A DNA stretch of 63,859 nt from Nitrospirota bacterium (GTDB lineage: Bacteria > Nitrospirota > Thermodesulfovibrionia > Thermodesulfovibrionales > UBA6898): positions 1-63,859 of the forward strand of contig JACRLQ010000019.1 in NCBI GenBank assembly GCA_016215155.1. The letters run 5' to 3'. The position numbers and the translations under genes were made by a program. Positions 18,606-61,069 of this stretch are shown here, in pieces (position 1 is the stretch's first letter; each line of letters begins with the position of its first letter). The notes under the pieces are model-generated. The model made no database searches and was not told the origin of the DNA. It saw only the letters and a program-made list of their open reading frames with translations.

Positions 18606-18721
18606 CGCAGGCCGGCCCTCAAATTATGGTTTGCTTTATTTTGGTCCGTCTTTTATACTTTTAACTGGTGTTCGCTAGCGGCTTCAATTGGCGGAGAATT
18701 GACATAATGAGTGGGGGATTA

Positions 18722-21598
18722 ATGAAAAAAAGAAATTTCAGTTTGATCATACTTGAGGTGTGCCTTTCTCTGTTCTTTATTTCCTTAACTGCTTCCGCAG
18801 TAATTGCATCGTATGAACTCACCGTGAACTCTCTGAACCCCGCAAGCGGAGTGGCGGTTACCGTCACCCCCAATGACAACAGCGGCCAGGGTAATGGGAC
18901 AACCTCCTTTACAAGGACGTACGATGATACCGCTGAGGTGACGCTGACGGCCCCCGCAATGGTAGGATGGAATAACTTCATCAATTGGACCGGGTGTGAT
19001 AGTACCTCCGGCGCCGGCAATACCGACTGCACCGTCTCGATGACGGCGGCCAGGGCAGTGACCGCGAATTATCAGGACGTATGTCATTTCAGCATTTTGC
19101 CTGCTGACCGGTACTTTGGTTCGAATGCGGGAACCGGCAGTATAAGGGTGACGGAACAGTTGTCGCCCTGCAGTGAAGTGTCGTTGACCGTATTGGTGAC
19201 CAATGCCCTGACCGGAGCCGCGATTCCAAATGCAGCGGTCACTTCAGGCGCGCAAAGCGGCTTTACCGACGGCACAGGAGCTTTCAAATTACTGGTGCCT
19301 CTTGATTTGACCGGCAACGCGATCGTAAGTGCAAGCGCGGTCAATTACGGTCCGGTGACGACGACAACGTCTCTTACCTGCGGCACGGAAAACAGTGTGA
19401 GTGTGTCATTAATGCCTATCAACAACGTCGGAACGCTGAGGGGAGATATCCGTATGGTGCTCACCTGGGGTTTAAACCCCGGCGATCTGGACTCGCATCT
19501 GACAGGACCATCTGTCGGCGGAGGCAGCAGATTTCATGTGTACTACGTTGATAAGAACAATTGCGGTTCGGCCGCATGTAACGCCGGCATACCTGCCTGG
19601 CTGGATGTGGACGACGTGACGAGCTATGGGCCCGAGACGGTCACGATCATGAAGTCAAACGGGTTATTCACCCCGGGGCTTTACAGATATTCCATACATC
19701 ATTTTGCAGGCAGCAGCGACATAGCAAACAGCGGCGCTGTGGTGAATTTGTATGAAGGGGCGACCCTGATAAGGACGTTTTATCCGCCGTATCCTGCAGC
19801 TGGCCAGACATTGAGTGACGATTGGGTATGGACGGTCCTTGAGCTGGAAGTCGATACCGATGGGACCAGCTATGAGCTCAATGACATTGGAACGTATTTC
19901 GGACCCGTGACCGCCGGCAGTGTCTCACGTCCGGGTCAGAACCCATCCTCAGAAGAGAGGGACCTGTTCAGGGACCTCCCTCCCAAGCAGGAAGAACCCG
20001 GCGGAACGGCACTTTCAGTTGCCCCGGTGGAGGGCGGACGTTCCGCCGGCGCGGTGACGCCTCTGACCGTGGGGAGCTGTCCATGGACGGCGGTGAGCAA
20101 TGACGCATGGATAAGCATTACCTCAGGCGACAGCGGAACAGGCAATGGCATGGTTGGGTATTCGGCTTCTGCGAATACAGGGACAAGTCTGAGGACCGGA
20201 ACGATAACCGTGGGAGGGCAGACATTTACAGTAATACAGTCTGGCGCACCGATAAGGACGCTGAGCGTGAACTCTTCAAACCCTGCAAGCGGCGTCGCGG
20301 TCACGATAACTCCGGATGACAACAACGGCCAGGGCAACGGGACAACCTCCTTTACAAGAATGTATGTCAATAATACCGAAGTGACGCTGACGGCCGCTGA
20401 TGAGGCTGATGGCAACATCTTCTCCACCTGGACCGGCTGTAACAGCACCTCAGGCGCGGGGGGGATCATTTGTTCAGTGAAGATGTCGGCATCAAGAACG
20501 GTGAAAGCGGTCTACGTAAAGCCCACCTTTGTGTTAACAGTGAACTCTACAAACCCTGCAGGCGGAGTATCGATTTCCGTCGATCCAAATGACAACAGCA
20601 GCCACGTCAGTGGCACGACCTCATTCACGAGGAGATACAACTTTGATACCGTGGTGACACTGACAGCGCCCGCAACCGCGGCAGGCAACAGCGTCAATTT
20701 CGGCAGTTGGACCGGCTGCGACAGCACCTCAGGCGCAGGGGGAAGCATCTGTGCCGTAAAGATGACCGAAACAAAGACGGTGACGGCCCATTATCTGATG
20801 CCAACCTATACATTGACCGTGCAGTCCGCAACCCCCTCAAGCGGAGTGGAGATCACGGTAACCCCCAATGACAACAGCGGCCAGGGGAATGGGACAAGCT
20901 CCTTTACAAGGACATTCAATAAAGATACCGTGGTGACTTTGACGGCGCCTGAAACGTCAGGGGACAGCGGCTTCAGCAGCTGGACCGGATGCGACAGCAC
21001 TTCGGGTGCAGGCGGTGTTACGTGCTCAGTAAACATGTGGGGCGCAAAGACGGTAACGGCAAACTATCTGGCGTATACCCTTACGGTGCAAAAAGATGGA
21101 ACGGGGGCCTCTCTGGGCACCGTAGTGGCTGATAGCGGGGTGCTTGGCTGGACTGGCGTTAATGGAAGCGCGGTATATCCTGTCAATACTCCGGTACAAT
21201 TAACAGCATCAATCAATGATGCCAATTATATGTTCAGCGGGTGGTCAGGCAATTGTGGCGGCAACGGGACGGTGTGCAATCTCATAATGAACGGCAGTAA
21301 GGCGGTTACCGCGACATTCGACCATGTCCCGGTTTCCTGCATAAATGGAAATATACTGGTTGGCAGTTCTTTTCACACGACCATTGAATCCTCACTTTCT
21401 TCCATAGTGAACGGGGCGTTGATAAAACTTGCCAAAAACAGTTTTGTGGAAAATGTCGCATTTGAAACGCCAGGCCTGCTTACGCTGAAGGGTGGCTTGA
21501 ATTGTGATTTTGCGACCATAATCGGTCTTTCAACAGTCGTGGGCAGCATCACAATAAGTGTTGGAGAGATAACAATCGATGGGATAATTATCAGATAA
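18722..21598 (+). CDS. Large exported repeat protein: B-repeats, DUF2135-like and BACON domains, shared C-terminal module
   Basis: 958 residues from ATG 18722, which follows GGGGG and starts a signal peptide (MKKRNFSLIILEVCLSLFF...). Domain order: one divergent InlB B-repeat-like unit (about 30-120), a transthyretin-like carboxypeptidase-regulatory stretch (about 150-235), a DUF2135/YfaP-like domain (WGLNPGDLDSHLTGP, about 245-395), a BACON-like domain (about 425-520), three more close B-repeats plus one divergent copy (about 520-860), and a C-terminal module ending TIDGIIIR. Close repeats share NDNSGQGNGTTSFTR and WTGCDSTSGAG, also at DNA level. Probably a surface or secreted adhesin-like protein; no catalytic motif is seen. 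Confidence 0.85.
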   Translation: MKKRNFSLIILEVCLSLFFISLTASAVIASYELTVNSLNPASGVAVTVTPNDNSGQGNGTTSFTRTYDDTAEVTLTAPAMVGWNNFINWTGCDSTSGAGNTDCTVSMTAARAVTANYQDVCHFSILPADRYFGSNAGTGSIRVTEQLSPCSEVSLTVLVTNALTGAAIPNAAVTSGAQSGFTDGTGAFKLLVPLDLTGNAIVSASAVNYGPVTTTTSLTCGTENSVSVSLMPINNVGTLRGDIRMVLTWGLNPGDLDSHLTGPSVGGGSRFHVYYVDKNNCGSAACNAGIPAWLDVDDVTSYGPETVTIMKSNGLFTPGLYRYSIHHFAGSSDIANSGAVVNLYEGATLIRTFYPPYPAAGQTLSDDWVWTVLELEVDTDGTSYELNDIGTYFGPVTAGSVSRPGQNPSSEERDLFRDLPPKQEEPGGTALSVAPVEGGRSAGAVTPLTVGSCPWTAVSNDAWISITSGDSGTGNGMVGYSASANTGTSLRTGTITVGGQTFTVIQSGAPIRTLSVNSSNPASGVAVTITPDDNNGQGNGTTSFTRMYVNNTEVTLTAADEADGNIFSTWTGCNSTSGAGGIICSVKMSASRTVKAVYVKPTFVLTVNSTNPAGGVSISVDPNDNSSHVSGTTSFTRRYNFDTVVTLTAPATAAGNSVNFGSWTGCDSTSGAGGSICAVKMTETKTVTAHYLMPTYTLTVQSATPSSGVEITVTPNDNSGQGNGTSSFTRTFNKDTVVTLTAPETSGDSGFSSWTGCDSTSGAGGVTCSVNMWGAKTVTANYLAYTLTVQKDGTGASLGTVVADSGVLGWTGVNGSAVYPVNTPVQLTASINDANYMFSGWSGNCGGNGTVCNLIMNGSKAVTATFDHVPVSCINGNILVGSSFHTTIESSLSSIVNGALIKLAKNSFVENVAFETPGLLTLKGGLNCDFATIIGLSTVVGSITISVGEITIDGIIIR

Positions 21599-26937: not shown

Positions 26938-27510
26938 TTATATCATAAATCCCTGATATACCACATTCGACAGGAAGTGAAAGAGTATCGGGGGGACGAC
27001 ATTGCCGGTCCTCAGGTATAAAAACCCCATGACCAGCGACGGGAAAAAGGTAAACAGTGCGGAGGGGTCATGGGAAAAGAAAAAGGCGGGAACATGGGCG
27101 AGCGCGAACAATGCGCTTACCGTTATGACCGCCTTCATATCATTGCCGAGCGACTGCTGAATAAACCCGCGAAAGAAGAACTCCTCAGGGACTGACACCA
27201 TGGCAAACTGATGAAATATCAGTGAAAGCGGCGGCAACCGCCATGGGCCGACGAAGGCCGACATGACAAAATATGTTGGGAGCAATACCAATACGGAGAC
27301 AACGGAACCCAGCTTGAGATTACTTCGATTTAAGGTCATATGTATTCCATCCGTCAGGACGAACGATACCAGGAGAAGATAAAAAGGGACAAGATAACGA
27401 ATCAGGGGCGCTGACGGGTAAATATAAGAAAGCACGACCGCAAAAAGAAGAAAAATATAAGATGGGATTATTTTTTTGTATATCAATTTATCGGAATTAA
27501 TTGTCAGCAT
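26938..27510 (-). CDS. CPBP-family intramembrane glutamic protease
   Basis: 190 residues from ATG 27510 (an in-frame TTG is at 27528), with about six membrane segments. The active-site set of the CPBP/Abi family is intact: E109-E110-xxx-R114 in VPEEFFFRGFIQ, H139 in FALAHVP, and H178 with N182 in FHFLSN. Family members cut prenylated or C-terminal-anchor substrates, and some (myxosortase, MrtJ-type) are dedicated to Cys-containing C-terminal sorting signals. A candidate substrate, the subtilase with a Gly-rich/Cys/TM/Arg tail, lies 5.3 kb upstream on the same strand. That pairing is inference. Confidence 0.88.
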   Translation of the reverse strand: MLTINSDKLIYKKIIPSYIFLLFAVVLSYIYPSAPLIRYLVPFYLLLVSFVLTDGIHMTLNRSNLKLGSVVSVLVLLPTYFVMSAFVGPWRLPPLSLIFHQFAMVSVPEEFFFRGFIQQSLGNDMKAVITVSALFALAHVPAFFFSHDPSALFTFFPSLVMGFLYLRTGNVVPPILFHFLSNVVYQGFMI

Positions 27511-27721: not shown

Positions 27722-30700
27722 CTATTTTATTACAATTCCATCAATTATTAGCGTTCCGTTGGTTATCGTCAGCGACCCTTCAATAGCTGAATTTGAAAAA
27801 TTGCTTATAAACGCGCAATCATACCCGCCCCTGAGGGTAAACGTGCCCGGACGGTTAAGGTTGACGCTCTCTGCAGAGGTCAGGCTGACCATGCGCAGGA
27901 TGTCGCCGTTTTGAACATCGACGACATCGGCGAAAGCGTTCTGGACCGTAGAGTAGACCAGGGACGTCCGTGTGTCTTTGACCGGCATGGTCCTGCAGGA
28001 AATATTGGGCTGCAGGAACGTCTCCGCAAGGAAGAGGCTCATGTCGGCCCTCGTCAGAGAATTGTCGGGGCAGAAGTTATCGCCTCCGCAGCCCACAGCC
28101 ACGCTGAACTCCCAGAGTTTCTCAATATACCTGCAGGTATTATTGCCTCCAAAGATACTGCCGTTTACATCATCAAACTTTGTGGCGGTGCATAGGTCCG
28201 CGGGTAATACACCCAGGGCCTTCAGAAGGACCACCGCCATCTCGCCGCGCGAGATGTAGGCATTGGGAAGAAAATATCCGTCGCTGCGCCGGGCCACTAT
28301 GTTAAGTTCGCTGAAGGCCTCTATATATCTGCAGACCTCAGCCCCCTGAGTCATGGCTGCATTGACGTCGTTATAGATGGCCCCTGTGCAGGCCGGCGCA
28401 GGGGCCAGCCCCAGCGCCTTGATTATAAAGACCGCCACCTGCCCGTTGTTTACGAACTCATTGGGGCAATAGGTGTTGCCGCCGGCGCAGGCCGGATTGA
28501 ATTCGTTATTAAACAGGGTCTCTATGTATGGCGCAGCGTAACTGCCCGGGGAGACATCCGAAAAAGAAGAGGTGTTAAGCAATAAAAAGTGGGCGGTGAC
28601 TTCCTGGTCTGAGCCCATGAGGACACGGCAGGTATTTCCGGTGTTCCTGCAGGCTCCGCTCCAGCCTGTAAATACGGCGCCGAAGGAGGGGGTCGCGGTC
28701 AGTATGACCGGGGTATTATAGCCGTATGGCGCCGTCCCAATGGTGAGAGGGCCATTCCATGTTATCAGGCCGGAACTGGCAGCGACTGTCCCGCCGCCTG
28801 TGCCGGCGATGTTTATCGTAAGGATGGCGGAGGGTGGCCTTGTAAACTCAGCGGTTACGGCTCTGTCGGCATTCATCGCAACTATACACAAATCTCCGTT
28901 TAAGCTGTCGCATCCTGTCCAGACGGTAAATTCCGAGCCCGAGGCCGCAACGGGCATCAGGGTCGCGATATCATTGGCCTTGAACGTCGCGGTCCCTATA
29001 CTGCCGATCCAGATGAAATCGCCGGCCCGGGGAAGGACGAGCAGGTTATCGCTGTCGGTATCGTTATAGCTTATCCTGAGTATATTCTCAGCGTCGGAAT
29101 CCTGGAACGACACCACAAGGATATTTCCGGAATACACGGAATCGCCCGTATTGATGTCATCGAGCCCCTGATAAAGGACGTCAACACTACCCGTGAGTCC
29201 CGATGCGTTGAGCTCGCCAAGGAGTATGGTACCGTTGCCCGTGCGGGAACCAGTGGCCACCTCCGTGAGCGTGAGGGTATTTCCCAGGTCAGTATCGGAA
29301 ACATCTGCAATGACCTCAACGGTCCCGAACAGGCCTGAGAAATTCAGTGTTGAAAGAGTTATTTTCGCGTTACAGGTCCCTGTGCCGGCCGCCACCTTGT
29401 CGTCGTTTGTTTTGGTGACCGAGTTATAGAGGGTGACCGTGGCTGCGCATGACGACCCTGATACCGTGACCGAGAGATCCCAGTACAAAACGGAAGTGAA
29501 GGGGTTCATCCCCTGCAACTGCCAGTTTCCGACCTGACCGATACCGGGATCACCGGCCTCGATAAACTGTGACAGGGTGACCGTCCTGTCTCCAAACAGA
29601 TCGGTCAATTTCCAGTAAAAAGCGTGCGCGTCAGGGGCCATGCCGGATATCCCAAGCAGGGTCCAGTTCGAGACCTGACCGGGGGTGAGGTCGTCCCCGA
29701 ATTCAGTGATCTGGGGAACAAAAGCCGCATTGAGGCTGCCGGACATTCCCGAGAAATTCTGAGGGAAAAGATCTATGGGGCCGTCTCCGGTGCGGAAACC
29801 GGTTGCCACCAGATTGGCTAAAGACTTTGTGGACGACCGGTAGAGGTTCACGATCCCTAAACGATCAAAGTCCAGCAGGTCCCAGTAAATACTCCTGTTG
29901 GCAGAGTCGATGTTCGTGGTGGACAGCCCGGAAAGCGACCAGACTGAAAGCTGGTTTGAGTTATCTCCCGAATCGGCAAGCGCCACCTTAAGGGCCACCT
30001 TCACGGACCCGGACAGCCCGGAACTATTTTGGGGCAGGAGCGTGATTGTGCCATCGCCGAGCTTCGAACCCTCGGCCACAAGGTCACCTGCGGCCTTTGC
30101 CGCCGCCTTATACAGGCTCACCGTCCTTGTGCCGCCTGAGTCCGTCAGGCTCCAGTAGAGCATGTACAGGTCCGTGTTCGAAGAGGATATGCCCGTCAGC
30201 GCCCACTCTGAGAGCTGCTGTGAAGTCTCGTCGCCGAATTCAGTAATGACGGCAAAATAAAGAGTGTTGTTGATATCGGTGTCATCCACGGAGTAATTAA
30301 CCGTGACACTGCCATTTATCCCGGACCCGTTGGCCTCAACAAGAGCGATCGAGCCGTTTGGTCCTGAACCCTCGGCCACCTTGTCGAGGGGATCAACTGA
30401 AGACTTCGCAGCCGATTTGTAGAGGCTCACCGTACTTGTGCCGCCGCCTGAATCCGTCAGGTTCCAGTAGAGGATATAGTCATCTGTGTTGGAGGCCGAA
30501 ACCCCGGTCAACGTCCAGCCTGAAAGCTGGTTCGCGGCATCCCCATTTTCAAACTGCTGGGGGATGGTATTGGCAAAGGTCACGTTGTTGACGAGCACAG
30601 TGCCGAACCCGCTGCCCGTTTTGGTGACGGTAAGCGCATAATTTCCCGCCGCGGTGTCAAAGTTTGCGGTGACGTTTTTGGCGGCGTTCATGGTCACCTG

Positions 30701-32695
30701 ACAGAGGCCAAACCCTGAGCAGTCTCCGGACCAGCCGGCAAAGTATGAGCCGGAATTCGTGACAGGCGTGAGGGTCACGACATCGCCGTTATTATGTGTT
30801 GAGGTTGCGGTGGACCCGTTCCAGAAAAGGGAACCCATGATCGCGTTCGCCGAATCTGTATCGTCTGCGGAGTAAGTGACGTCCACGCTCCCCGAGAGGC
30901 CGGAACTGATGCGCTCGCCGAGGATTATCGTCCCGTTGCCTACACGGGAACCCTGCGCCACGAGATCAACCGTGGACTTCAGGCTCGACCGATAGAGCTT
31001 GACCGTCGTGGTGACACCATCGCGCACCAGGTCCCAGTAGAAGGTATATGCCTTCATCTCGGTTTCAGGCAGCCAGTTAATGCTCCAGTTCGAAAGCTGG
31101 TCCGCCGTATCGCCCTGTTCCAGGACCGGGATTACCGTGCCGGCCCCGGCGCCTGTCTTTGTTATGGTAAGTCTCTGTTGGGTCGGCACGCCGGCCATAA
31201 AGGCGACCGTGACATTCTTGTTGTCGGCGTCCATGTCTATCTGACAGGGCGTTACGCCTCCGCCGCAGGCCCCTGACCAGGTAAATTGAGAGTTCGTCGC
31301 GGCGAGGTCGGCAAAGATGTTCACATGGCTGCCGGCCTTGAGGATCGTGGACATAATGCTCGTTGCCGGATAGGCGAAGTCGATGCCCCCGACATCGGAG
31401 AGCACTGATCCTCCGGCCTCGCCGGTTGCATTGACGGTCAGATTATAGCAGCCCAGGGTCGAGTACTGGACGGACTGGGACCCGGCGGCATTATCGGCCA
31501 CCTTGATTTTAAGCGTATGCGAGCGTCCGGGCCTGAGGTCGGTCTCTGAATAGGTCAGCAGGTACCCGACCACATCCAGGTCGCTTGCAATGGCGGCGTA
31601 TATGCCGGCAAGCTCAGCGGAAGTGGGCGCTTCGAAATATTTACCGCCCGTATCAACGGCCATCTGCGTCAGAGCGGTGGCGTCCGCCCCTCCGAGCCCT
31701 ATGGTAAATATAGGGAGCTGGTTGTCTTTCGCGAATTGGATCACCTCGTCGATAGTGCGTGTAGAGCCGTTGTCCCCGCCATCCGTCATGGCAACTACCG
31801 CCCGGGTATTGGTAGTCACCGAGGCGGTATCGACAAGGGCCTGATATACCGAATCAAAAAGCGCTGTAGCGCCCCCGGCCCCTGGCCAGTCGTCTAATAC
31901 CGCGGAGGTCAGGGCGCTCGCATTCGAGGTGAAAGATTGCATCACCTCCACCTCAGAGCTGAATTTTATGACCTCTGCCTGGCCGCCGGTCGAGGTTATA
32001 CGGGTTATGAAGTCCACGGCGGCGTTTTCCATGTCCGTGATGGCATCTTCGGGCATACTGCCGCTATAGTCCATGGTCATCGCGACCGCCGTGCTTGCGC
32101 CGGGACAGGTCGCTGTCTGCAGAGTAAAGTCTGTCTTCTGGACAGAGTCAGCAAATACCGTAAAGTCTCTCTGGACCAGATTATTAAGGACGCCCGAGGC
32201 CCCCTTCACTTCAACGCATGCATAAACGGAGGCGCAACTGCTGTTGACGCTGCCTATCCTGATGGTCTTGTCGTTGAGGCTCGAAAAGGTCACAGTGACC
32301 GTCCTTGTCACCCCGTCGGACACAAAACACTGATTGGAGGTCGTGCTGCTGCATCCGTTCCACCTGACAAAGGATGACCCAGCGTCCGCCGTTGCGATAA
32401 GTGTCACCGGAGTGCCGGTAAAAGTATGTGAACAGACGACGGCGCCTGTTGCGTTCGGGCCGCAATTCATTACCGGCGGAGAACTCGTGACAATTCCCGT
32501 GCCTGTCCCTGACTGGGCGACGGTTATCGTGGGGGCGGCGTCGGCGCCTCCGGAGAGGCCAGAAAACAAAAAGGCGCATATCAGCATTAGAGAAAGCGGA
32601 ACTAAAGAACCCACCCCTGCACCCCTCCCAAGAGGGGACTTTCGAGACAAGGACGCATTCGGAAATGATTTGGCTCTATTATTATCGCAGTTCAT
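27722..32695 (-). CDS. Giant exported vWA / SLH repeat protein
   Basis: 1657 residues from ATG 32695, fixed by AGGAGG four bases upstream. The signal core is MLICAFLFSGLSGGADA. Domains: a B-repeat-like unit (about 55-140), a von Willebrand A domain (about 150-385) with MIDAS DYSGSM near residue 208 and AMTDGGDNG, and a short B-repeat. About six copies of a roughly 90-residue unit follow (QLSxWxLxG...YWxLTD...TVSLYKSAAKS...GSGLSGSVxVxY...DDTD), interrupted by another B-repeat, then two more B-repeats, three Cys-containing SLH-like repeats (about 1378-1562) and a C-terminal module ending IIDGIVIK. Probably a surface adhesin or matrix protein. The n-region is encoded by an intergenic-type repeat. 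Confidence 0.87.
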   Translation of the reverse strand: MNCDNNRAKSFPNASLSRKSPLGRGAGVGSLVPLSLMLICAFLFSGLSGGADAAPTITVAQSGTGTGIVTSSPPVMNCGPNATGAVVCSHTFTGTPVTLIATADAGSSFVRWNGCSSTTSNQCFVSDGVTRTVTVTFSSLNDKTIRIGSVNSSCASVYACVEVKGASGVLNNLVQRDFTVFADSVQKTDFTLQTATCPGASTAVAMTMDYSGSMPEDAITDMENAAVDFITRITSTGGQAEVIKFSSEVEVMQSFTSNASALTSAVLDDWPGAGGATALFDSVYQALVDTASVTTNTRAVVAMTDGGDNGSTRTIDEVIQFAKDNQLPIFTIGLGGADATALTQMAVDTGGKYFEAPTSAELAGIYAAIASDLDVVGYLLTYSETDLRPGRSHTLKIKVADNAAGSQSVQYSTLGCYNLTVNATGEAGGSVLSDVGGIDFAYPATSIMSTILKAGSHVNIFADLAATNSQFTWSGACGGGVTPCQIDMDADNKNVTVAFMAGVPTQQRLTITKTGAGAGTVIPVLEQGDTADQLSNWSINWLPETEMKAYTFYWDLVRDGVTTTVKLYRSSLKSTVDLVAQGSRVGNGTIILGERISSGLSGSVDVTYSADDTDSANAIMGSLFWNGSTATSTHNNGDVVTLTPVTNSGSYFAGWSGDCSGFGLCQVTMNAAKNVTANFDTAAGNYALTVTKTGSGFGTVLVNNVTFANTIPQQFENGDAANQLSGWTLTGVSASNTDDYILYWNLTDSGGGTSTVSLYKSAAKSSVDPLDKVAEGSGPNGSIALVEANGSGINGSVTVNYSVDDTDINNTLYFAVITEFGDETSQQLSEWALTGISSSNTDLYMLYWSLTDSGGTRTVSLYKAAAKAAGDLVAEGSKLGDGTITLLPQNSSGLSGSVKVALKVALADSGDNSNQLSVWSLSGLSTTNIDSANRSIYWDLLDFDRLGIVNLYRSSTKSLANLVATGFRTGDGPIDLFPQNFSGMSGSLNAAFVPQITEFGDDLTPGQVSNWTLLGISGMAPDAHAFYWKLTDLFGDRTVTLSQFIEAGDPGIGQVGNWQLQGMNPFTSVLYWDLSVTVSGSSCAATVTLYNSVTKTNDDKVAAGTGTCNAKITLSTLNFSGLFGTVEVIADVSDTDLGNTLTLTEVATGSRTGNGTILLGELNASGLTGSVDVLYQGLDDINTGDSVYSGNILVVSFQDSDAENILRISYNDTDSDNLLVLPRAGDFIWIGSIGTATFKANDIATLMPVAASGSEFTVWTGCDSLNGDLCIVAMNADRAVTAEFTRPPSAILTINIAGTGGGTVAASSGLITWNGPLTIGTAPYGYNTPVILTATPSFGAVFTGWSGACRNTGNTCRVLMGSDQEVTAHFLLLNTSSFSDVSPGSYAAPYIETLFNNEFNPACAGGNTYCPNEFVNNGQVAVFIIKALGLAPAPACTGAIYNDVNAAMTQGAEVCRYIEAFSELNIVARRSDGYFLPNAYISRGEMAVVLLKALGVLPADLCTATKFDDVNGSIFGGNNTCRYIEKLWEFSVAVGCGGDNFCPDNSLTRADMSLFLAETFLQPNISCRTMPVKDTRTSLVYSTVQNAFADVVDVQNGDILRMVSLTSAESVNLNRPGTFTLRGGYDCAFISNFSNSAIEGSLTITNGTLIIDGIVIK

Positions 32696-32826
32696 AGGTC
32701 CTCCTGATACTGTCATATATATAGCTTATGCTATAATTATGACGGAATACTTCTCATTAAGGCAAATAGCCGCACAGCGCCCCCTCCTCGAAAAAGGCGC
32801 CGGGAGAGGGCCGGAAAAAAAGACCG

Positions 32827-35433
32827 TTACTTTCTGCGTCTAAGGGTCCTTATTAATCCGATAACTACCAGCGGCAGCAGTAATACCGCGCCGTCGGAAA
32901 CCGCCGTCGGAAGGTTCTGCCTCGGTCCGACAGAGCATCCGCCGCCCCCGCCGCCTAAGCCCGCCTGCGGACCGGCGGTCACACCCGTCACCCCGGAATA
33001 TCCGGATTCAGCCATGACAGGGGAGCGGTTAGGAGGATTGGGAAGGGCGCTCACCGCCTTTATCCGATACGTGTACGATGTGCCTGCCGCGAGCCCCCTG
33101 TCGGTAAACGACGTCGCGTTCTGACCGGCCTCGGCTATCATCAGGAAGGTACCGTCCGGCTGCTTTCTCTCAATCACATACAGGTCCTCGCCGGAGTTGT
33201 CGCTCCACGACAGGTTCAGCTCTGAAGACACGGATGAGACCGCGGTGAGCCCGGCCGGAGGCAGGAGCGATGTTACGGCCTTCTGCGCGTTTATGCGGCC
33301 GCCTGAATATATCCACCCCTCAAGAGATGGCTGCTTGTCCACATATTTGATGATCATGCCCCTGATCTGGGAATAACTGTAGTTTGGGTAGGCGCTCTTA
33401 AGGAGCGCGGCAAGGCCCGCTACATGGGGCGCGGCCATCGAAGTCCCGGAACAGACGTTATAGCCGGCAAGCGGAGTTCCCGTGCACCAGGTGGCGCTCC
33501 AGTCAGTAGGAAAGGCCACATCAGTCGAGGTCGTCGGGACCGTGCTCATTATATAATCTCCAGGCGCCGACACATGCACCGTCTCCAGTCCGAAATTGCT
33601 GAACGTCGAGCGCCTGTCGTTCTGGTTGGACGACGCGACCGCGATGACATTGTCCAGCACAAACGACGCGGGGTAGACCGGGTTTATATCGTTGTTGTCA
33701 CCCCTGAAGTCTCCGGGTATGTCCGAGCTGCCGTTTCCGGCGGAGGCTATTACCAGGACGCCCGCCTGTCTCGCCGCAAGGATGGCGTCTCTCATGGCAT
33801 ATGACATGCCGGGGCCCCCCAGGCTGGCGTTTATTATCTTTACACCTTTGAATGTCGCGTACCCTATCGCGTCGATAACGTCGGAACTGCTGCAGGACCC
33901 TGATGAGTCGCATACCTTAAGCGGCATGAGTTCCACCCTCCAGTTTACACCGGCGGTCCCTTCCCCGTTATCACCCGTGGCCCCTATGATGCCGGCGACA
34001 TGGGTGCCATGGCCGTTGTCGTCCCACGGGTCGTTGGTGCCGTCGACGAAGTTCCAGCCCCTCCAGTCATCGATTCTTTTATTGTTGTCATATTCGATCG
34101 TGGAGGCCGTTAACCCCGCGGACTGGTCAACGAGCAGCGCCGCCTCGGTCCTGCCCTCGAGGATATCGGCAAATCTCCTGGCCTCCGTCTTGTTCGCCGC
34201 GGTATAATTCATCGGGACCGCCACTTTCGGGCGGATATGAAGGGCCGCGAGCGCGGCCTCATCCGCGGTCATCACGTCTCCGCCGGAGACCGGCAGGAGC
34301 GCAACATCGACGCCTGTAAGCGGGGGATTCATCATCTCGGGGACCAGGCCGGTGTCTCCGGCAAAGTAGATCTTCGGCCCCGGCTCAAGTTTGAGATCGA
34401 CCACCGGGTTCGTCCCGCCGGTCGGGGTGTTTATATCGCGGTTTCTGTTGACCGTAAAGATGAACCCGACCCACCCTGCCGATGACGGATGATTGGGCTT
34501 GTTGGTGCTGTAAGCAGGCACCGCCTCGATATGGATGCCCCCGACGTCAAGCGTGTCCCAGTGCCTTACCGTCCTGATATTGGGGACGGCGTGGGGCTTC
34601 AGGAGCGGGACGTTGTCGGAGAGCCTCTTTGCGCAGTCCGGAGTAGTCACGATCACGGTGTTCGGTCCGAGCACTTTTACCACGTCAGAAGGGGAACAGT
34701 GGTCGCTGTGGTCGTGGGATATCAGAATTATGTCCGCTACATCGGTCTTCTGGATTCTATACGGATCAGTATAGATGACCTGCTCGCCCACGATCTTGAA
34801 GGTCGCCGTGCCGAGCCAATGGGTGTCCTGCAGGAGGACCTTGACCCTGTCGGCCCACATATTGCCGGCCAGGTCCGGGTGGGTATAATCGATCCCGGTA
34901 TCCATGACGGCCACGGCCACACTCCTGGACCCCGTGGTTACATCCCAAGCGCCCTGGGCCTTTATGTCGGCGCCTGGGGTCCCGTTGGCGTACGTGCCGG
35001 TATTCTGAAGCGCCCACTGCTGCGGGTTATAATAAAGGTCATTGGGCATCCTCAAGACCGAATTAATATAATCAGGCTCGGCATAATCAACGCTTGCGCC
35101 GCTCATATAAATCCCTATGGCGTCCGGGACGGAAAGTCCGGCGGGCAGTCTGACAAGATAGAGGCTGTCGATACCCGATAGCTTCCGGAGGACGGTCCCC
35201 CCCGATAACTGGTGCGCGACGTTCATATCAGCGTCTGAGACGCCGTCCTTAAACTTCACGATGATCTGACCTTCCCTGAACCTGGCTGCGGCAATCTTTT
35301 CGAGGACGGCCTTTGCGGTCACCGCCTTCGAGGGCTGTACCCCCTGACCTCCGTTTATGACGTCCGCGGTCTTCGGACCTCCGCAGGCCGCGATCGATAT
35401 GGTCAAAAGCGCTGATATTATAATTTTTTTCAT
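32827..35433 (-). CDS. Subtilisin-like protease with a nested metallo-beta-lactamase-fold domain
   Basis: 868 residues from ATG 35433 (GGAGAGG upstream). The signal ends in a lipobox-like IAAC (Cys17). A propeptide-like region spans about 50-125. The S8 triad is Asp178 (VMDTGID), His475 (NGHGTHVAG) and Ser665 (SGTSMAAPH), with oxyanion Asn567 (ASAGNGS). Between Asp178 and His475, residues about 196-446 form an MBL-fold (UlaG-like) domain with H240-x-H242-x-D244-H245, H315 and D360, but Asn409 where relatives have His. A fibronectin III domain (about 725-797) follows, then a tail with GLGGGGGGC (Cys833), a hydrophobic segment and RRRK. The S8 sequence resumes cleanly on both sides. A paralogue of the inserted domain is the gene at 60371. 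Confidence 0.93.
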   Translation of the reverse strand: MKKIIISALLTISIAACGGPKTADVINGGQGVQPSKAVTAKAVLEKIAAARFREGQIIVKFKDGVSDADMNVAHQLSGGTVLRKLSGIDSLYLVRLPAGLSVPDAIGIYMSGASVDYAEPDYINSVLRMPNDLYYNPQQWALQNTGTYANGTPGADIKAQGAWDVTTGSRSVAVAVMDTGIDYTHPDLAGNMWADRVKVLLQDTHWLGTATFKIVGEQVIYTDPYRIQKTDVADIILISHDHSDHCSPSDVVKVLGPNTVIVTTPDCAKRLSDNVPLLKPHAVPNIRTVRHWDTLDVGGIHIEAVPAYSTNKPNHPSSAGWVGFIFTVNRNRDINTPTGGTNPVVDLKLEPGPKIYFAGDTGLVPEMMNPPLTGVDVALLPVSGGDVMTADEAALAALHIRPKVAVPMNYTAANKTEARRFADILEGRTEAALLVDQSAGLTASTIEYDNNKRIDDWRGWNFVDGTNDPWDDNGHGTHVAGIIGATGDNGEGTAGVNWRVELMPLKVCDSSGSCSSSDVIDAIGYATFKGVKIINASLGGPGMSYAMRDAILAARQAGVLVIASAGNGSSDIPGDFRGDNNDINPVYPASFVLDNVIAVASSNQNDRRSTFSNFGLETVHVSAPGDYIMSTVPTTSTDVAFPTDWSATWCTGTPLAGYNVCSGTSMAAPHVAGLAALLKSAYPNYSYSQIRGMIIKYVDKQPSLEGWIYSGGRINAQKAVTSLLPPAGLTAVSSVSSELNLSWSDNSGEDLYVIERKQPDGTFLMIAEAGQNATSFTDRGLAAGTSYTYRIKAVSALPNPPNRSPVMAESGYSGVTGVTAGPQAGLGGGGGGCSVGPRQNLPTAVSDGAVLLLPLVVIGLIRTLRRRK

Positions 35434-60370: not shown

Positions 60371-61069
60371 CTATTCTTCCCTTAGTATCGTCACTTCTAT
60401 CCTGCCTTTCAGCAGATCGGAAAACCTTTTAGCGTCCTCCGGCGACCCCACTATCGACCCGTAATGCATGGGGATGGCAAGCTTCGGCTTTATGTCTAGC
60501 GCGGCCTTTACCGCCTCCTCGGCGGTCATGACATAGGTGCCTGAGACCGGAAGCAGGGCTATGTCCGCCCTGAAATCTTTCATCTCCGGTATATGGTCGG
60601 TGTCGCCGGCCAGATAGATCCTCTGCCCGTTGAGGGTAAAGATATAACCTGCCCAGCCCCTGTCCTTTGTATGAAAATTCTTGTTTGTATTATAAGACGG
60701 CACAACCTCGACCTTTACGCCCAGAACTTCAATACGGTCTCCGGGCTTTACGGTCGTGATCTTCCCTGAGAGCTTGGCCGCGCAATCGGCAGGCGCGACT
60801 ATGACCGTCTCGGGGCCCCTGACCTTCGCGACGTCTTCAGGTGAACAATGGTCGCGATGTTCATGGGTAATAAGTATGATGTCCGCGACGTCTTTTTTCT
60901 TTATCTGAAAAGGGTCGGTATATATGACCTTTTCGCCTGTAATCCTGAACGTGTCATGTCCGAGCCAGTGAATATTCTTTGTCATAGTATCTCCTCCATG
61001 GACTTCCTGGATGCCAAGCATATAAATGCAGGCCGTTACCGCAATAATAAGAAGAAACGCTTTTTTCAC
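60371..61069 (-). CDS. Exported metallo-beta-lactamase-fold hydrolase (UlaG-like)
   Basis: 232 residues from GTG 61069 (AAAGGAG upstream). An N-terminal hydrophobic stretch (about 4-20) reads as a signal peptide; an internal ATG (residue 29) just before the catalytic domain could give a cytoplasmic form. The metal-site residues are complete: H69-x-H71-x-D73-H74 (THEHRDH), H133, D156 (AGDTD) and H202 (IPMHYG). Family members hydrolyse lactones or phosphodiesters; the substrate here is unknown. It is a clear paralogue of the domain nested in the 32827 subtilase, matching from HWLG to the end, but with all ligands intact. Confidence 0.9.
   Translation of the reverse strand: MKKAFLLIIAVTACIYMLGIQEVHGGDTMTKNIHWLGHDTFRITGEKVIYTDPFQIKKKDVADIILITHEHRDHCSPEDVAKVRGPETVIVAPADCAAKLSGKITTVKPGDRIEVLGVKVEVVPSYNTNKNFHTKDRGWAGYIFTLNGQRIYLAGDTDHIPEMKDFRADIALLPVSGTYVMTAEEAVKAALDIKPKLAIPMHYGSIVGSPEDAKRFSDLLKGRIEVTILREE

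What the first reader, a model, noticed from the sequence alone, without database searches (positions are those of the whole stretch)
26938..27510. CPBP intramembrane protease paired with a Cys-containing C-terminal sorting signal
The subtilase (32827) ends GLGGGGGGC, a hydrophobic stretch and RRRK (bases 32827-32958). This three-part tail is like MYXO-CTERM and JDVT-CTERM signals, which are processed by CPBP-family proteases (myxosortase, MrtJ types). A catalytically complete CPBP gene lies 5.3 kb away on the same strand. Together they may be a small dedicated sorting system for the nested protease. The protease also has a lipobox-like N-terminus, so its final topology is unclear.
Basis: partly seen in the sequence, partly recalled or inferred. 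Interest (0 to 1): 0.66.

Follow-up and report, generated by a model that had tools for sequence, protein, structure and literature searches.

The report
Protease that sorts Cys-tailed surface subtilases
A bacterium of the Nitrospirota carries a membrane protease that most likely trims a cysteine-containing tail off one or two partner proteins so that they can be fixed to the cell surface; this enzyme-tail pair recurs across its class but reaches the cut-off of no current family model, and in some relatives it sits beside the export machinery.

Summary
The gene at 26938-27510 (-) is a catalytically complete CPBP (Rce1-fold) protease, the only one in the genome. The subtilase at 32827-35433 (-) ends in Gly-rich/Cys/TM/RRRK. 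A profile of 18 such tails finds exactly two in the genome: this subtilase and an unrelated Temptin_C-domain protein on another contig. Across 150 genomes of the class, tail and this CPBP clade occur together in 28, tail alone in 1, protease alone in 4, neither in 117 (Fisher 5e-25; 1e-18 without the profiles' own genomes). Other CPBPs do not track the tail. In 18 of 28 genomes the tailed gene lies within 600 bp of the protease. The clade groups with CPBPs of Dadabacteria and Desulfurobacteriaceae, whose genomes also carry such tails. No NCBIfam Mrt or CTERM model reaches its cut-off, so it works like a myxosortase but belongs to no named Mrt/CTERM pair. In three relatives read, a complete gspC-N type II secretion operon is bracketed by two tailed subtilases with the protease at its end. 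The subtilases also carry an invariant N-terminal lipobox Cys. Cleavage, lipidation and surface location remain inferred.

The parts
26938..27510 (-). CPBP glutamic-type intramembrane protease, proposed sorting enzyme (TTG-extended ORF reaches 27528)
   Evidence: PF02517 72 bits; AF2 pLDDT 93.6; MmRce1 4cad Z 14.1 over 181 residues
27169..27186 (-). catalytic motif EExxxR (E115, E116, R120)
   Evidence: invariant in 17 orthologues
27094..27096 (-). catalytic His H145
26965..26979 (-). motif HxxxN (H184, N188)
32827..35433 (-). substrate: S8 subtilase lipoprotein with nested metallo-beta-lactamase domain, fn3 domain and C-terminal sorting tail
35383..35385 (-). N-terminal lipobox Cys (IAAC)
   Evidence: invariant Cys in 16 aligned subtilases
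35071..35313 (-). fervidolysin-type propeptide domain PF22148
   Evidence: 49.5 bits
34210..34821 (-). metallo-beta-lactamase domain inserted inside the S8 domain
   Evidence: PF13483 71.9 bits; 46% identical to the window protein 60371-61069
33046..33261 (-). fn3 domain before the tail
   Evidence: PF00041 27 bits
32830..32961 (-). tripartite tail GLGGGGGGC - TM helix - RRRK
   Evidence: profile A1 74.5 bits, E 2e-20; predicted disordered linker then helix 843-867 of the 868-aa protein
32935..32937 (-). invariant tail Cys, proposed lipidation and cleavage site
   Evidence: invariant in 18 tails
27722..32716 (-). VWA/InlB-repeat/SLH protein lying between substrate and protease; no tail, not a proven part of the system
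   Evidence: no such gene between the two in the adjacent pairs of relatives

Best explanation
A small dedicated cell-surface sorting system that works like myxosortase/MYXO-CTERM. The subtilase is exported by Sec and held in the inner membrane by its C-terminal TM helix with RRRK inside; the tail Cys (GGGGGC-S-[IV]) is probably lipidated (Lgt is the candidate); the CPBP protease cuts beside it and removes the helix; [quoted passage not shown] Because the N-terminal lipobox Cys lies before the propeptide, autocatalytic removal of the propeptide would discard the N-terminal anchor and leave the C-terminal one to hold the active protease. Shown here: catalytic residues and fold, conserved tail, second unrelated tail-bearing protein, co-distribution, adjacency, linkage to a T2SS operon in one family of relatives. 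Inferred: cleavage, lipidation, surface location, order of steps.
For: Co-distribution 28/1/4/117 in 150 genomes, p=5e-25, p=1e-18 without the genomes used to build the profiles. Other CPBPs do not track it: PF02517 is in 86 of 150 genomes, and of the 54 with only other CPBPs one has a doubtful tail hit. Tail within 600 bp of the protease gene in 18 of 28 genomes, in both relative orientations. Tail occurs on a Temptin_C protein as well as on subtilases. Only one CPBP in the genome. Rce1 fold and complete motifs. GspD in 31 of 32 protease-positive against 61 of 118 protease-negative genomes, p=8e-7; T2SSJ about 6 kb from the pair in all six protease-positive f10 genomes, and complete gspC-N operons bracketed by tailed subtilases read in three of them. 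Lgt present. M. xanthus MrtX cleavage of a Cys-containing tail is experimentally shown (PMC11980579).
Against: No biochemical evidence here. Protease scores below every curated Mrt cut-off. Four genomes have the protease with no tail found. In the window itself the two genes are separated by a 5-kb gene. T2SS is common in the class (GspD in 92 of 150), so its link is supportive rather than specific. Most genomes are metagenome assemblies, and related genomes are not independent (genus-level p is still 3e-16).
Confidence: 0.82

Rival explanations
1. The tail is processed by a rhombosortase (GlyGly-CTERM-like), and the CPBP has another role such as immunity or regulation.
For: The Gly-rich run before the Cys resembles GlyGly-CTERM; VesB of V. 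cholerae is likewise a propeptide-bearing serine protease with an Ig-like fold and a C-terminal tag (PMC13393428).
Against: Rhombosortase model over cut-off in only 3 of 150 genomes, none of them with tails; own genome 29 bits against cut-off 84. Invariant Cys in all tails. Tail tracks the CPBP.
Confidence: 0.03
2. The tail is only a C-terminal membrane anchor and is never cleaved; association with the CPBP reflects operon history.
For: No cleavage evidence; the TM helix plus RRRK would suffice as an anchor (inference).
Against: Invariant GGGGC and near-invariant S and D in the tails, and the same motif on unrelated proteins; the association persists in genomes where the genes are not adjacent (10 of 28 tail genomes, counting the window's 5.3-kb case) and in both orientations.
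Confidence: 0.07
3. The protease is simply a divergent MrtJ or MrtS and the tail a divergent JDVT-CTERM, i.e. a known pair in new phyla.
For: 13 of 18 tails match JDVT-CTERM weakly; best score among tails scored 21 bits against cut-off 27; protease 74 bits to MrtS and 44 to MrtJ; the MrtJ/JDVT-CTERM system is also a two-gene neighbourhood (PMC11980579).
Against: No protease or tail tested reaches any curated cut-off of these systems. The paper reports MrtJ neighbourhoods from beta- and gamma-proteobacteria. Best protease match (MrtS) and best tail match (JDVT) belong to different known systems.
Confidence: 0.2

Closest known systems
MrtJ / JDVT-CTERM
   Same: Two-gene neighbourhood of one CPBP protease and one Cys-tailed target (PMC11980579)
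   Different: Model scores below cut-off on both sides; here Nitrospirota, Dadabacteria and Desulfurobacteriaceae; target usually a subtilase lipoprotein; linked to T2SS in some genomes
MrtX myxosortase / MYXO-CTERM
   Same: CPBP protease, invariant Cys then TM then Arg-rich end; T2SS-dependent surface delivery reported for MYXO-CTERM
   Different: MYXO-CTERM has 35 targets in M. xanthus, here one or two per genome in the class (up to 14 profile hits in other phyla); tail scores 9.3 bits against cut-off 20
MrtS / Synerg-CTERM
   Same: Best-scoring protease model (74 bits)
   Different: Cut-off 130 not reached; only 1 of 18 tails matches Synerg-CTERM, at E 7.7
Rhombosortase / GlyGly-CTERM (VesB)
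   Same: Serine protease with propeptide, Ig-like domain, Gly-rich tail, T2SS export to the surface
   Different: Unrelated enzyme (rhomboid); rhombosortase not found over cut-off in tail-bearing genomes
Rce1 / MmRce1 (4CAD)
   Same: Fold and catalytic residues
   Different: Cleaves prenylated CAAX C termini; no CaaX box here

Membership tests
CPBP / Rce1-like glutamic intramembrane proteases | PF02517 over gathering score | tested here: met
   72.1 bits, cut-off 22.4
CPBP / Rce1-like glutamic intramembrane proteases | EExxxR, His, HxxxN catalytic residues and Rce1 fold | tested here: met
   invariant in 17; 4cad Z 14.1, rmsd 3.0 over 181 residues
Myxosortase family (Mrt_core NF040914) | score over curated cut-off 100 | tested here: not met
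   62.1 bits; best of 17 orthologues E 9.5e-20
MrtX, MrtC, MrtP, MrtS, MrtJ, MrtZ | equivalog/exception cut-offs | tested here: not met
   35.8/180, 52.1/195, 63.7/250, 74.2/130, 43.7/75, 30.6/325
Myxosortase-type sorting system (functional sense) | co-distribution of protease with a tripartite Cys-containing C-terminal signal | tested here: met
   28/1/4/117, p=5e-25
Myxosortase-type sorting system (functional sense) | tail shared by proteins with unrelated passenger domains | tested here: met
   subtilase and Temptin_C protein in the same genome
Myxosortase-type sorting system (functional sense) | Cys-dependent C-terminal cleavage by the protease | not testable with these tools
   needs experiment
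MYXO-CTERM (TIGR03901) | tail over cut-off 20 | tested here: not met
   9.3 bits
JDVT-CTERM (NF033191) | tail over cut-off 27 | tested here: not met
   window tail 7.7 bits; best related tail scored 21 bits
GlyGly-CTERM / rhombosortase | rhombosortase TIGR03902 present with the tail | tested here: not met
   over cut-off in 3 of 150 genomes, none with tails
Named Mrt clades | phylogenetic placement against reference Mrt sequences | not tested
   no reference Mrt sequences could be fetched; the tree holds only CPBPs of the class and relatives

The most novel reading that the evidence does not exclude
The system is an integrated, self-protecting export line for surface proteases: the CPBP lipid-anchors tailed subtilases, and the T2SS secretin that exports them carries a C-terminal copy of the subtilase propeptide (PF22148, 45-50 bits in three relatives; a 57.5-bit match to a local profile in the window's own genome) that docks or inhibits them during passage.
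Probability: 0.3. Interest if true: 0.82.

Novelty: new variant of a known kind. Interest (0 to 1): 0.64.

Why it matters
It extends CPBP-mediated C-terminal sorting to Nitrospirota, Dadabacteria and Desulfurobacteriaceae with a signal and enzyme clade that current family models do not call, so these proteins would be annotated without their sorting signal. The one-enzyme, one-or-two-substrate layout is a simple test case for the open question of which enzyme lipidates the Cys, and the placement of substrates and protease around a complete T2SS operon gives genomic support for the proposed but unproven T2SS step of myxosortase pathways.

Tried and rejected
A DNA pattern for Gly-rich/Cys/Arg tails was useless alone (47 matches against 49 in the control). 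Rhombosortase was tested and rejected as the enzyme. A search of plasmids for CPBP relatives found nothing. The 2024 paper that described MrtJ/JDVT-CTERM is not in the library, so novelty against it rests on NCBIfam models and on its summary in PMC11980579. The full subtilase model is poor (pLDDT 62) and used only for the tail helix. The secretin-propeptide fusion was first thought specific to protease-bearing genomes but is near-general in the class (about 84-86 of 92 GspD), so it is not evidence for the pairing. The protease-positive, tail-negative genomes G064, G096, G138, G147 were searched at relaxed E and no convincing tail was found; no subtilase motif or Cys/hydrophobic tail was seen in their fetched protease neighbourhoods.

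Full report
What is there. The window (contig C13 of a 3.43-Mb genome whose closest CPBP relatives are Nitrospirota, Thermodesulfovibrionia) holds a CPBP gene at 26938-27510 (-), the only PF02517 gene in the genome. It has the complete motif set E115 E116 R120, H145, H184 N188, a confident model (pLDDT 93.6) and the fold of archaeal Rce1 (4cad: Foldseek probability 1.00; VIA-align Z 14.1, 3.0 A over 181 residues). The second-ranked chain of that comparison, 6u0o (SagB-SpdC, Z 13.9), shows only a shared fold. Upstream on the same strand, ending 5.3 kb away, is a subtilase with an N-terminal lipobox, fervidolysin-type propeptide, S8 domain interrupted by a metallo-beta-lactamase domain, fn3 domain, Gly-rich linker, Cys, TM helix and RRRK.

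The tail is a real, portable signal. Eighteen tails (the window's and 17 from loci fetched by the protease) align with invariant GGGGC and P33 and near-invariant S13 and D26. The profile finds exactly two in the window's genome: the subtilase and a 437-aa Temptin_C-domain protein at C87:66077-66202. Tailed proteins of 400-526 aa that resemble the latter at their N termini occur in the three other sampled genomes of the genus.

Pairing. In 13 of the first 38 loci a tailed ORF lies next to the protease gene, 11 just upstream on the same strand and 2 convergent, and all ten tailed ORFs checked are S8 subtilases with the same propeptide and fn3. In an even sample of 150 genomes of the class, tails occur in 29 and the protease clade (at least 140 bits) in 32; both 28, tail only 1 (G069, short frame with a stop), protease only 4, neither 117 (Fisher 5e-25, genus level 3e-16). 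Leaving out all genomes that built the profiles gives 1e-18. PF02517 itself is in 86 of 150, so the tail follows this clade and not CPBPs in general. In 18 of 28 genomes the genes lie within 600 bp, 11 on the same strand and 7 convergent. Rhombosortase is over cut-off in only three genomes, none with tails. Some loci and genomes are the same assemblies, so the two counts are not independent.

Relation to known systems. The window protease scores best to MrtS, MrtP and Mrt_core but below all cut-offs; the 17 orthologues give the same list with similar best E-values. Tails match JDVT-CTERM weakly (best 21 bits of those scored, cut-off 27) and MYXO-CTERM less. In a tree of 78 CPBPs the Thermodesulfovibrionia, Dadabacteria and Desulfurobacteriaceae sequences form one group (92/91) apart from other CPBPs of the class; long branches and lack of reference Mrt sequences limit this. 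Genomes of the latter two groups also carry tails of the form GGGGC-S-[IVLM], up to 14 hits in one genome. Some OFTM genomes in that group are labelled Myxococcota by their records; their protease falls with Dadabacteria. Loci were found partly through the peptide FFPSLVMG, so its conservation there is in part selection. I therefore say it works like a myxosortase system but do not file it under a named pair.

Type II secretion. T2SSJ lies about 6 kb from the protease in all six protease-positive genomes of family f10. Three of these were read in full (L179, L180, L181): tailed subtilase, gspC to gspN, second tailed subtilase, protease convergent (domains checked for L179 and for the three GspD; gspN, H, I and J named by position and pilin-type N termini). 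The other three (G098, G102, G118) rest mainly on coordinates. GspD is in 31 of 32 protease-positive genomes against 61 of 118 others. The own genome has a gsp cluster on C36 and a second T2SS-like cluster on C52. This matches the T2SS-dependent route reported for MYXO-CTERM and GlyGly-CTERM proteins (PMC11980579; PMC13393428).

Mechanism. By analogy with MrtX, whose Cys-dependent cleavage of TraA is shown experimentally: Sec export, IM retention by the tail, lipidation of the Cys (enzyme unknown; Lgt is present), CPBP cleavage, T2SS transport. The subtilases also have an invariant lipobox Cys ahead of the propeptide. I infer that propeptide removal discards this first anchor, leaving the C-terminal one on the active enzyme. 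The Temptin-type proteins of the genus have signal-peptide-like N termini without a canonical lipobox, so the tail does not seem to depend on it.

Side finding. GspD of these bacteria ends in a subtilase-propeptide-like domain (PF22148, 45-50 bits, cut-off 21; own genome L182:6387-8579, 57.5 bits to a local profile). It is present in about 84-86 of 92 GspD of the class (matches spanning the profile), so it is not specific to this pairing. Three literature searches found no description of it.

Noticed in passing
L182:6387-8579 (own genome C36), L179:12533-14842, L180:12398-14635, L181:11891-14209: T2SS secretin GspD carries a C-terminal subtilase-propeptide domain (PF22148); near-general in GspD of the class (about 84-86 of 92). 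Possible docking or self-protection device against exported subtilases; no description found in the library.
   Followed up: partly
window 34210-34821 and 60371-61069: The metallo-beta-lactamase domain nested in the subtilase is 46% identical to a stand-alone MBL protein in the same window; the same nested architecture is in L040:7337-9964.
   Followed up: partly
window 27722-32716, 18668-21598; L182:224-3100: Three proteins of this genome share a C-terminal end of the form GGxxCxF...S.I.GSxTI..G...I.I, perhaps another sorting or surface domain; one of them lies just before the gsp operon on C36.
   Followed up: no
L182:11397-13265: A 622-aa protein with an internal GGGGCFIATAAFGS (CFI-box-like) motif sits inside the own gsp operon between gspF and a gspH-like pilin gene; a different Cys motif from the sorting tail.
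   Followed up: no
genomes G160 and G163 (loci L134-L150): Dadabacteria-like genomes have 11-14 hits to the tail profile, so the system may be much broader there than in Nitrospirota.
   Followed up: partly
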